NCBI GenBank assembly: GCA_902624195.1
Contig: CACNWV010000001.1
Coordinates: forward strand, 1 to 64,000
DNA from: an uncultured Pelagibacteraceae bacterium
GTDB taxonomy: Bacteria; Pseudomonadota; Alphaproteobacteria; Pelagibacterales; Pelagibacteraceae
Direction: 5' to 3'
DNA length: 64,000 bases
The translations under genes were made by a program, and so were the position numbers. The notes under the pieces were generated by a model. That model had not been told where the DNA came from. It made no database searches and saw nothing but the letters and a program-made list of their open reading frames with translations. Shown piece after piece: positions 21,803 to 64,000 of this stretch (the stretch's first letter is position 1; every line of letters begins with the position of its first letter).

Positions 21803-21877
21803 GCGGGCATAGCTCAGTGGTAGAGCGTCTCGTTGCCAACGAGAAGGTCGAGGGTTCAAGTCCCTTTGCCCGCTCCA
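21803..21877 (+). tRNA. tRNA-Gly(GCC)
   Basis: A 75-nucleotide cloverleaf. The 7-bp acceptor stem GCGGGCA/TGCCCGC, a D arm with AGTGGTAGA, a 5-bp anticodon stem TCTCG/CGAGA around the loop TTGCCAA (anticodon GCC at 21835-21837), and a T arm with GGGTTCAAGTCCC are all visible. The 3' CCA is encoded (875-877 of the 21 kb block). The next coding sequence starts only four bases after it, so the tRNA is probably cut out of a longer transcript. Confidence 0.97.
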
Positions 21878-62713: not shown

Positions 62714-63544
62714 TTAGATTTCAAGTTTAGTATGTTTTATTCCTGAAACTGGACCACTCATAAATATGTTAAGACTTGAATCTATTTTAATATTTAAACT
62801 TCCTTCTTCAAATTTAATATTGATATCATTTTTAGTTAATTTCTTTATTAATGCTGCCACAGCAGTTGCGCAAGCAGCTGTTCCACATGCTTTTGTTAAT
62901 CCAGCACCACGTTCCCAAACATTTACTATAATTTTATTTTCATTATCTACTTGAGCAAAAGTAACATTAGTTCTTTCTGGAAATAATTCATGATTTTCTA
63001 TTTTAGGTCCTAATATTTTTAGATCATATTCAAAACAATTTTTGACAAAAAAAATTATATGTGGATTTCCTACATTAAGACTAAATCCATCAGTAAATTC
63101 TTTACCATCAACATTTATAGTTATATTTTTGTGATCTAATTTTTCTTTTAATGGAATTTTATGCCATTCAAATTCAGGCTTTCCCATTTCTAGCTGAACA
63201 TCATAGTCCCCAACAATTTTTGCATTTAGTAATCTGTTATTAGTTCTTAATTTAATTTCTTTATTATTTAAATCTTTACTTAATAAATAAGCTACACACC
63301 TGCTTCCATTTCCACACGCACTTACTTCACCACCATCTGAATTAAAAATAGTTATTGGAAATGTATTATTAATTTCTTTTTCAATAAATATCATTTGGTC
63401 AAATTCGATATTACGGTGAAAAGACTTGAGTTTTCCTAAATGAATTATTTTTTCTTTGGGTATATTTATTGAGTTTTTTCTTCTATCTATAATAATAAAC
63501 CTATTACCTAGACCGTCCATTCTAAAAGCATTAATCAAAGGCAT
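62714..63544 (-). CDS. dapF: Diaminopimelate epimerase DapF
   Basis: Interconverts LL- and meso-diaminopimelate for lysine and peptidoglycan. The two catalytic cysteines are Cys77 in ACGNGSRC and Cys220 in KACGTAAC. NAFRMDGLGNRFIIID at the N-terminus and NVGNPHIIFFV are conserved. Length 276. It is divergent from ffh and lies directly before ftsY. Confidence 0.97.
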   Translation of the reverse strand: MPLINAFRMDGLGNRFIIIDRRKNSINIPKEKIIHLGKLKSFHRNIEFDQMIFIEKEINNTFPITIFNSDGGEVSACGNGSRCVAYLLSKDLNNKEIKLRTNNRLLNAKIVGDYDVQLEMGKPEFEWHKIPLKEKLDHKNITINVDGKEFTDGFSLNVGNPHIIFFVKNCFEYDLKILGPKIENHELFPERTNVTFAQVDNENKIIVNVWERGAGLTKACGTAACATAVAALIKKLTKNDINIKFEEGSLNIKIDSSLNIFMSGPVSGIKHTKLEI

Positions 63545-63600
63545 AATAATAGATTAGTATAATTATTCATTGACTTTTAAAACCCCAAATTGTAGTTTTC

Positions 63601-63700
63601 ACTAACTTTCCGCAAATACACATGTTTTTGCGGTGCTCTTGAAACAAGAGTGTCGACACTAGTCAGCGAAGGTTCGCCCACTAGTGCAATAGGTGTTAGT
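63601..63700 (+). ncRNA. Candidate structured leader RNA of ffh (four-stem junction)
   Basis: A closing stem ACTAAC (63601-63606) with GTTAGT (63695-63700) encloses three hairpins: CCGCAAA/TTTGCGG (63610-63616 with 63627-63633), CTCTTG/CAAGAG with an AAA loop (63636-63650), and CACTAGT/ACTAGTG (63657-63663 with 63680-63686) capped by GCGA/TCGC. All stems are perfect. The last arm ends 10 bases before the ffh ATG, so it could control ffh translation. It does not show the SRP RNA core. Identity is unknown to me. Confidence 0.6.
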
Positions 63701-63710
63701 TGATATAAAA

Positions 63711-64000
63711 ATGTTTGAAAATTTAACAAATAAATTAGAAAGTATTTTTTCTAAGCTTAAAAATGCTCCTTCATTGACTGAAGAACAGGTAGACTCTGGT
63801 TTAAAAGAGATACGACTAGCTTTATTAGAGGCTGATGTAGCTCTTCCTGTTACCAAAGAATTTTTAGCCAATGTAAAACCGAAAGCCATTGGTAAAGAAA
63901 TTATCAAATCAACTTCTGCCGGCCAGATGATTGTTAAAATTGTCTACGATGAACTAGTAAACATTTTAGGCTCTAAAAACGAGGAACTTAACTTTAAAGC
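63711..64000 (+). CDS. ffh: Signal recognition particle protein Ffh, cut by window end
   Basis: The first 96 residues of the SRP GTPase are visible: the N-domain four-helix bundle with MFENLTNKLESIFSKLKN and the family motif SGLKEIRLALLEADVALPVTKEF. The G and M domains lie outside. The ATG has no good ribosome site in front; AGGTG (63691-63695) is 15 bases upstream and lies inside the leader structure. Its receptor FtsY is encoded about 1 kb to the left on the other strand. Confidence 0.96.
   Translation, partial: MFENLTNKLESIFSKLKNAPSLTEEQVDSGLKEIRLALLEADVALPVTKEFLANVKPKAIGKEIIKSTSAGQMIVKIVYDELVNILGSKNEELNFK

What the first reader, a model, noticed from the sequence alone, without database searches (positions are those of the whole stretch)
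63601..63700. Four-stem junction in the ffh leader
Within 100 bases, one 6-bp closing stem encloses three perfect hairpins (7, 6 and 7+4 bp). This is far more structure than expected by chance in such AT-rich DNA, and it abuts the start codon with no free ribosome site. The layout is that of a riboswitch or autoregulatory leader; Ffh or SRP RNA level could be the signal. It may match an already described SAR11 or alphaproteobacterial motif that I cannot recall.
Basis: partly seen in the sequence, partly recalled or inferred. Interest (0 to 1): 0.75.

Follow-up and report, generated by a model that had tools for sequence, protein, structure and literature searches.

The report
S16 ribosomal-protein leader, misnamed ffh
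The 100 bases before the ffh gene encode a known alphaproteobacterial RNA element (Rfam 'ffh') that has two more conserved hairpins than its database model, and because the same element sits directly before the ribosomal-protein gene rpsP in a marine clade where no SRP genes could be found, it likely senses ribosomal protein S16 rather than Ffh.

Summary
Its 3' half is Rfam RF01793, 'ffh' (42.5 bits, cut-off 35), published in 2009 as a single hairpin of unknown function (PMC2704228). Hairpins 1 and 2 also recur across Alphaproteobacteria; the second has a 4-bp extension with clear compensatory changes. The closing stem is not clearly conserved. In 14 of 14 leader-bearing genomes of family f51 (PS1/OCS116 clade, named through contig lengths) the leader lies directly before rpsP with no ffh between. 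None of the 18 f51 genomes gives an SRP54-domain match over cut-off or a 4.5S RNA match. There both hairpins still change in a compensatory way. Elsewhere trmD and/or rplS have left the operon while the leader stays. rpsP is the one gene common to all arrangements seen, one doubtful contig (G524) apart. Best reading: a predicted autoregulatory leader for S16, whose operon a 2024 review calls one without known regulation (PMC10931766). Binding and repression are untested.

The parts
63570..63598 (+). possible promoter (TTGACT, then a weak -10 such as TAGTTT or TTGTAG); TTGAC recurs at this place in all 30 genus leaders listed
   Evidence: read by eye; the consensus scan found no sigma-70-like site
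63601..63606 (+). P0, 5' strand of the closing stem (ACUAAC)
   Evidence: hypervariable in relatives; partner-shuffle test p 0.060 (genus), 0.0035 (rest of family), 0.97 (f2) and 0.30 (class)
63610..63633 (+). hairpin P1 (CCGCAAA/UUUGCGG)
   Evidence: present in relatives of the own order and in 19 class leaders in which the script found it; fourth pair C-G (once U-G) in the own order, G-C, A-U or G-U in the class
63631..63634 (+). CGGU, 5' strand of the P2 extension; overlaps the 3' base of P1, so the two pairings exclude each other
   Evidence: pairing probability in this leader alone at most 0.28, 0.001-0.015 for the three pairs shared with P1
63636..63650 (+). hairpin P2 (CUCUUG/CAAGAG)
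   Evidence: 8 of 10 pairs of P2 plus extension show changes on both sides among 52 leaders, 87.1% of cells paired
63652..63655 (+). GUCG, 3' strand of the P2 extension, linker to P3
63657..63686 (+). hairpin P3, the published ffh motif, with the conserved C..C mismatch
   Evidence: 9 of 11 pairs with changes on both sides, 100% of cells paired
63642..63694 (+). match to Rfam RF01793 (ffh sRNA)
   Evidence: 42.5 bits, cut-off 35
63631..63692 (+). match to model R1 (P2 with extension plus P3), built here; this sequence is one of its 52 rows
   Evidence: 69 bits
63695..63700 (+). P0, 3' strand (GUUAGU), 10 nt upstream of the ffh start codon
63711..64000 (+). ffh, first gene of ffh-rpsP-trmD-rplS-leuC-leuD-leuB...; continues beyond the window
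62714..63544 (-). dapF, divergent neighbour, also found beside the leader in f51 where ffh is gone

Best explanation
This is the 5' leader of the ffh-rpsP operon, and it likely works as an autoregulatory switch: free ribosomal protein S16, made from rpsP, is predicted to bind the P2-P3 part of the leader and so lower translation of the first gene and of the operon. Shown here: the recurring hairpins P1, P2 and P3, the compensatory changes, the position before ffh-rpsP or before rpsP alone, and the absence of any detectable SRP in a clade that keeps the leader. Inferred: that the ligand is S16, that binding stabilises the leader and shuts the ribosome entry region before the start codon (in the own family perhaps with help of P0), and that the strand CGG, which can pair either in P1 or in the P2 extension, is the moving part.
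For: (1) Family f51: leader directly before rpsP in 14 of 14 genomes with a match, no Ffh in 4 of 4 searched, no SRP54-domain match over cut-off in 18 of 18 and no 4.5S match in 18 of 18; the same searches find Ffh, FtsY and 4.5S in the own genome. (2) There the structure is still maintained: P3 100% paired with 2 pairs changed on both sides; P2 pair 2 G-C in 10 and A-U in 4 of 14, pair 5 C-G in 8, U-A in 5 and U-G in 1. (3) rpsP is the common gene: rplS lies about 2 Mb away in G577 and on the other strand in G613; trmD and rplS were not found within 13.5 and 7.2 kb past rpsP in G309 and G441; ffh is missing in f51. (4) rpsP follows on the same strand in 92 of 96 other class genomes fetched with long flanks and in 63 of 64 loci of the own family. 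(5) Strong covariation. (6) Precedent: an S16 leader is proposed in Flavobacteria (PMC7247131, passages), and E. coli S16 is reported to bind cruciform DNA (PMC10931766, passages).
Against: No binding or expression data for S16 here. A search of the own 16S locus with the leader model found no resemblance to an rRNA site (best 9.3 bits, E 0.16, outside the rRNA). The distance from the end of the Rfam match to the first start codon ranges from 13 to 283 nt, so one simple start-site block cannot serve all lineages. P0 lacks support in family f2 and in the class. In f51 the leader could in principle have been kept with the shared promoter. In f51 S16 is not separable from TrmD and L19 by context. 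G524 has the motif and a match to only the first 137 residues of Ffh, with no rpsP in 12.5 kb. The 4.5S model rings in 12 of 14 control genomes, over its cut-off in 9, so a divergent RNA could be missed. Four f51 genomes had no motif match and were not examined further.
Confidence: 0.55

Rival explanations
1. The leader binds Ffh (or senses free 4.5S RNA) and autoregulates ffh, cautiously, the 2009 paper suggested.
For: ffh is the next gene in 64 of 64 loci of the own family and in 101 of 102 class genomes outside f51.
Against: The leader persists and covaries before rpsP in f51, where no Ffh, FtsY or 4.5S was found. R1 finds nothing in the own 4.5S RNA, and RF00169 does not match the window.
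Confidence: 0.07
2. The ligand is another product of the operon, L19 or TrmD.
For: trmD and rplS follow rpsP in most class genomes fetched with long flanks and, where the stretch reaches, in f51 (trmD in 9 of 14, the other five stretches end within 260 nt of rpsP). L19 leaders are known in Firmicutes and Flavobacteria (PMC7247131, passages).
Against: rplS is elsewhere in G577 and G613; trmD and rplS were not found near the leader in G309 and G441 (the leader matches there are weak, E 1.4e-4 and 2.4e-4).
Confidence: 0.1
3. The RNA is a structured 5' cap against decay, or the source of a processed small RNA, with no specific operon-encoded ligand.
For: Reported as a small transcript: metatranscriptomes cited in PMC2704228 (passages), 'ffH leader RNA' in Bartonella RNA-seq (PMC7717549, passage in its abstract); Rfam types it as sRNA; variable distance to the gene.
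Against: The near-invariant C..C mismatch and linker and the tie to ffh/rpsP argue for a specific partner.
Confidence: 0.17
4. A metabolite riboswitch.
For: Junction-like layout; two mutually exclusive pairings.
Against: The first genes are for ribosome and SRP parts; no riboswitch family matches; conserved residues are mostly in helices and one mismatch.
Confidence: 0.05

Closest known systems
Rfam RF01793 / 'ffh motif' (Meyer et al. 2009, PMC2704228)
   Same: P3 with its conserved cytosines, position before ffh, Alphaproteobacteria; this locus scores above the cut-off
   Different: Published as one bulged hairpin of unknown function; here P1, P2 and the P2 extension are added, C..G or G..U stands for the A..C of the bulge in many genomes (A..A in some), and the leader is found before rpsP without ffh
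Predicted S16 ribosomal leader of Flavobacteria (PMC7247131)
   Same: Leader of an operon containing rpsP, S16 proposed as ligand
   Different: Other phylum, rpsP directly downstream there; its structure could not be compared here
Autoregulatory ribosomal-protein leaders in general (S15, L20, L19 and others; names from PMC7247131)
   Same: Cis-acting structured leader of a ribosomal-protein operon
   Different: No binding test; no rRNA mimicry detected; a non-ribosomal gene (ffh) comes first in most genomes
Bacterial SRP RNA (RF00169)
   Same: Context with ffh only
   Different: No match of the leader model to the 4.5S RNA

Membership tests
RF01793 ffh motif | score at or above the gathering cut-off | tested here: met
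   42.5 against 35 bits
RF01793 ffh motif | bulged hairpin with two near-invariant cytosines | tested here: met
   alignment
RF01793 ffh motif | precedes ffh in Alphaproteobacteria | tested here: met
   ATG of ffh at 63711; the same place between ffh and dapF as in PMC2704228's table for 'Cand. P. ubique' (passage). No call names the window's own organism
Ribosomal-protein autoregulatory leader | cis position upstream of the gene of the ligand in all lineages | tested here: met
   rpsP downstream in every arrangement seen except G524, four contig ends and six genomes with flanks too short to tell
Ribosomal-protein autoregulatory leader | conserved structure with covariation | tested here: met
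   94.4% of cells paired, 203 cells changed on both sides, 0 of 500 shuffles as high on either
Ribosomal-protein autoregulatory leader | resemblance to the ligand's rRNA site (frequent, not required) | tested here: inconclusive
   R1 against the 16S locus: nothing better than 9.3 bits, and that outside the rRNA; a looser mimicry would be missed
Ribosomal-protein autoregulatory leader | the protein binds the leader and represses expression | not testable with these tools
   needs the bench
S16 leader of Flavobacteria | same structure and conserved residues | not tested
   the published alignment was not available here; no second Rfam family reached its cut-off at the locus
SRP RNA mimic bound by Ffh | helix-8-like loops | tested here: not met
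   the 2009 paper also says there is no resemblance (passage)
Metabolite riboswitch | match to a known class or to metabolic genes | tested here: not met
   no match; the next genes are ffh, rpsP, trmD and rplS, with metabolic genes (leuC and on) only further down

The most novel reading that the evidence does not exclude
The orphan 'ffh motif' is the S16 autoregulatory switch of Alphaproteobacteria: S16 moves the strand CGG from P1 into the P2 extension of its own messenger, tying production of the SRP protein Ffh to 30S assembly, and the switch outlived the complete loss of SRP in the marine PS1/OCS116 clade.
Probability: 0.25. Interest if true: 0.78.

Novelty: new member of a known kind. 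Interest (0 to 1): 0.6.

Why it matters
If true, a widespread RNA element without a function since 2009 gets a ligand, and the rpsP (trmD) operon, described for E. coli in a 2024 review as a rare ribosomal-protein operon without information on its regulation (PMC10931766, passage), gets a candidate regulator in one bacterial class. It would also mean that synthesis of the SRP protein is set by ribosome assembly. The SRP-less clade makes the question directly testable: swap leaders between f51 and other alphaproteobacteria and add S16 or Ffh. The apparent lack of SRP in a clade of marine bacteria is of interest in itself.

Tried and rejected
Ffh/SRP as ligand: rejected on f51. L19: disfavoured by G577 and G613. 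Mimicry of 4.5S or 16S: searched with R1, nothing found. P0 as a conserved closing stem: the partner-shuffle test was significant only in the own family outside the genus (p 0.0035, 26 pairs), not in family f2 (0.97, 6) or the class (0.30, 19); the genus gave 0.060 (26). That test dropped the leaders in which the script found no P1 (listed there: 1 genus, 1 family, 20 class, some of these mis-located) and others that failed its filters without being listed. Sigma-70 promoter and intrinsic terminator scans: none found. P2 extension as the ground state: in this leader alone P1 wins by about 4 kcal/mol, so the switch needs a partner. The count uses 52 of the 99 distinct cores that I count in the listing; cores whose P2 limits I could not place by eye were left out along with near-duplicates, which flatters P2, and five f51 rows are misaligned on the 5' side (most of their extension cells were set aside as gaps). 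R1, built from those rows, gained 29 class genomes over RF01793 but lost 5. Four of the 16 hits are records labelled Gammaproteobacteria, Acidobacteria, Clostridia or plain Alphaproteobacteria and were not examined. Literature: in the listings and passages seen no paper gives this motif a ligand; most listed papers were not opened. One search found no paper holding both 'PS1 clade' and 'signal recognition particle'. Papers were seen as passages only (PMC2704228, PMC7247131, PMC10931766, PMC5596092, PMC8321541; PMC7717549 one passage, in its abstract).

Full report
What is there. The ffh start codon is 63711-63713. The gene order beyond the window is ffh-rpsP-trmD-rplS-leuC-leuD-leuB and on, with no rimM between rpsP and trmD (names other than ffh and rplS are my reading of the translations, ffh and rplS are confirmed by model). 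dapF is divergent. P. ubique' in PMC2704228, so below I write 'own genus, family (f1), order' (f2 is the other family of the order).

It is a known element. Rfam finds RF01793 at 63642-63694, 42.5 bits against a cut-off of 35. The source paper (PMC2704228, passages) describes one bulged hairpin before ffh, widespread in Alphaproteobacteria, not resembling 4.5S RNA, function unknown. In my samples RF01793 is found in 267 of 297 genomes of the order, 47 of 61 of the genus and 106 of 385 of the class at E 0.001, 81 of them over the cut-off.

It is larger than its model. Relatives show hairpins P1 and P2 upstream of the Rfam hairpin P3. P2 continues through four more pairs, CGGU with AUCG. On 52 cores from the own order, other alphaproteobacteria and f51, chosen from 99 distinct ones, 94.4% of cells pair (P2 with extension 87.1%, P3 100%). 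17 of 21 pairs change on both sides (4 of 500 shuffles reach that), and no shuffle of 500 reaches the covariation score. Sliding the partners by 1 to 3 columns drops pairing to 35-43%. In the extension the first pair is C-G in 33, U-A in 8, A-U in 1 and U-G in 1, and unpaired in 4; the fourth is U-A in 35, U-G in 6 and C-G in 5. The A..C of the P3 bulge is C..G in 29 of the 40 loci, G..U in 2, A..C in 4 and A..A in 3, the neighbouring C..C staying in 38; so the bulge is better seen as one C..C mismatch next to a mostly pair-like position. Model R1, built from these 52, finds 130 of 385 class genomes against 106 with RF01793; 29 are gained and 5 lost. All 29 gained were fetched, and in all 29 the match lies before ffh.

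Two pairings compete. The CGG at 63631-63633 closes P1 (CCG/CGG) and also opens the P2 extension. In six leaders of the own family (L054, L055, L164-L167) the C is U, and both partners are A (the P1 partner of L054 and L055 read by eye). These may be one or two events on the tree. Outside the order the second match is not always kept (L106, by eye). One genus leader (L075) departs from both. Energetically P1 wins by about 4 kcal/mol. That this is a switch is inference.

The closing stem is the weak point. Its strands lie at the likely RNA start and just before the start codon and vary between close species. Pairing cognate against shuffled partners gave p 0.060, 0.0035, 0.97 and 0.30 for genus, rest of family, f2 and class. 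Of five f51 leaders folded singly, all form P3, four form P2 (not L184), and three (L123, L188, L190) show some helix enclosing P2 and P3, each a different one, while L180 shows none.

Who is the ligand. Gene order was read in three sets. Own family: ffh next in 64 of 64 loci, rpsP on the same strand in 63 (the miss, L011, is at a contig end). Class genomes outside f51: 102, ffh next in 101 (L129 ends at the contig edge). rpsP on the same strand in 92 of the 96 fetched with long flanks; misses are three contig ends (L116, L129, L266) and G524, whose Ffh match covers only residues 1-137 and which has no rpsP in 12.5 kb; the other 6 had flanks too short to tell. f51: 14 of 18 genomes have the motif, and in 14 of 14 rpsP follows directly, with no ffh match in the stretch; trmD follows in 9, the other five stretches ending within 260 nt of rpsP. 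L123 shows the full order dapF, leader, rpsP, trmD, rplS, leuC. Ffh was sought in four f51 genomes with TIGR00959 and not found. SRP54-domain proteins, which in the own genome include both Ffh and FtsY, were sought in all 18 and none passed the cut-off; seven had matches of at most 20.5 bits, below the cut-off of 22.7, and all 14 control genomes rang. 4.5S RNA was sought in all 18 and not found; 12 of 14 controls rang, 9 over the cut-off. Six of the 18 are at least 90% complete with little contamination. Four f51 contigs have the exact lengths of records named PS1 clade, OCS116 cluster, Hyphomicrobiales bacterium and MED-G09. So the SRP seems lost there, and the leader, kept before rpsP, still shows compensatory changes in P3 (2 pairs, 9 cells) and P2.

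The other genes can also be separated. rplS is about 2 Mb away in G577 and on the opposite strand about 6 kb past trmD in G613. In G309 and G441 the leader (weak matches, E 1.4e-4 and 2.4e-4, right position) is followed by ffh and rpsP, with no trmD or rplS found in the 13.5 and 7.2 kb that follow. In family f24 extra sequence of 2 kb or more stands between ffh and rpsP, but rpsP is still downstream on the same strand in the four genomes seen. G524 apart, the gene common to all arrangements is rpsP.

Likely mechanism. Predicted: excess S16 binds the P2-linker-P3 core, the leader closes, and 30S entry at the first start codon falls. Where the leader lies up to 283 nt from the first gene another step, such as early termination or decay, would be needed. 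Supporting but indirect: an S16 leader is proposed in Flavobacteria (PMC7247131, passages). E. coli S16 is reported to bind cruciform DNA, and the regulation of its operon is unknown (PMC10931766, passages); [quoted passage not shown] Against: no rRNA likeness was found and nothing has been tested at the bench.

Verdict.

Noticed in passing
L180-L193 and genomes G345, G469, G564, G640 and the other f51 members: No SRP54-domain protein over cut-off (so neither Ffh nor FtsY) and no 4.5S RNA match in 18 of 18 genomes of a marine alphaproteobacterial family: apparent loss of the whole SRP.
   Followed up: partly
L062:1675-2211 (just beyond the window): S16 of this genome has a long Lys/Glu-rich repetitive C-terminal tail (178 aa in all).
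   Followed up: no
L216:2569-5195: In G546 five successive plus-strand ORFs of 181-200 codons, possibly a tandem family, lie between ffh and rpsP.
   Followed up: no
L300:1595-2281: In G613 rplS lies on the other strand beside a fragment matching the end of TrmD, as if an inversion had split the operon.
   Followed up: no
window 63650-63659: GTGTCGACAC, a 10-base palindrome spanning the end of P2 and the start of P3, offers a further competing pairing.
   Followed up: no
window 21803-21874: tRNA gene, the only other Rfam match over a cut-off in the window.
   Followed up: no
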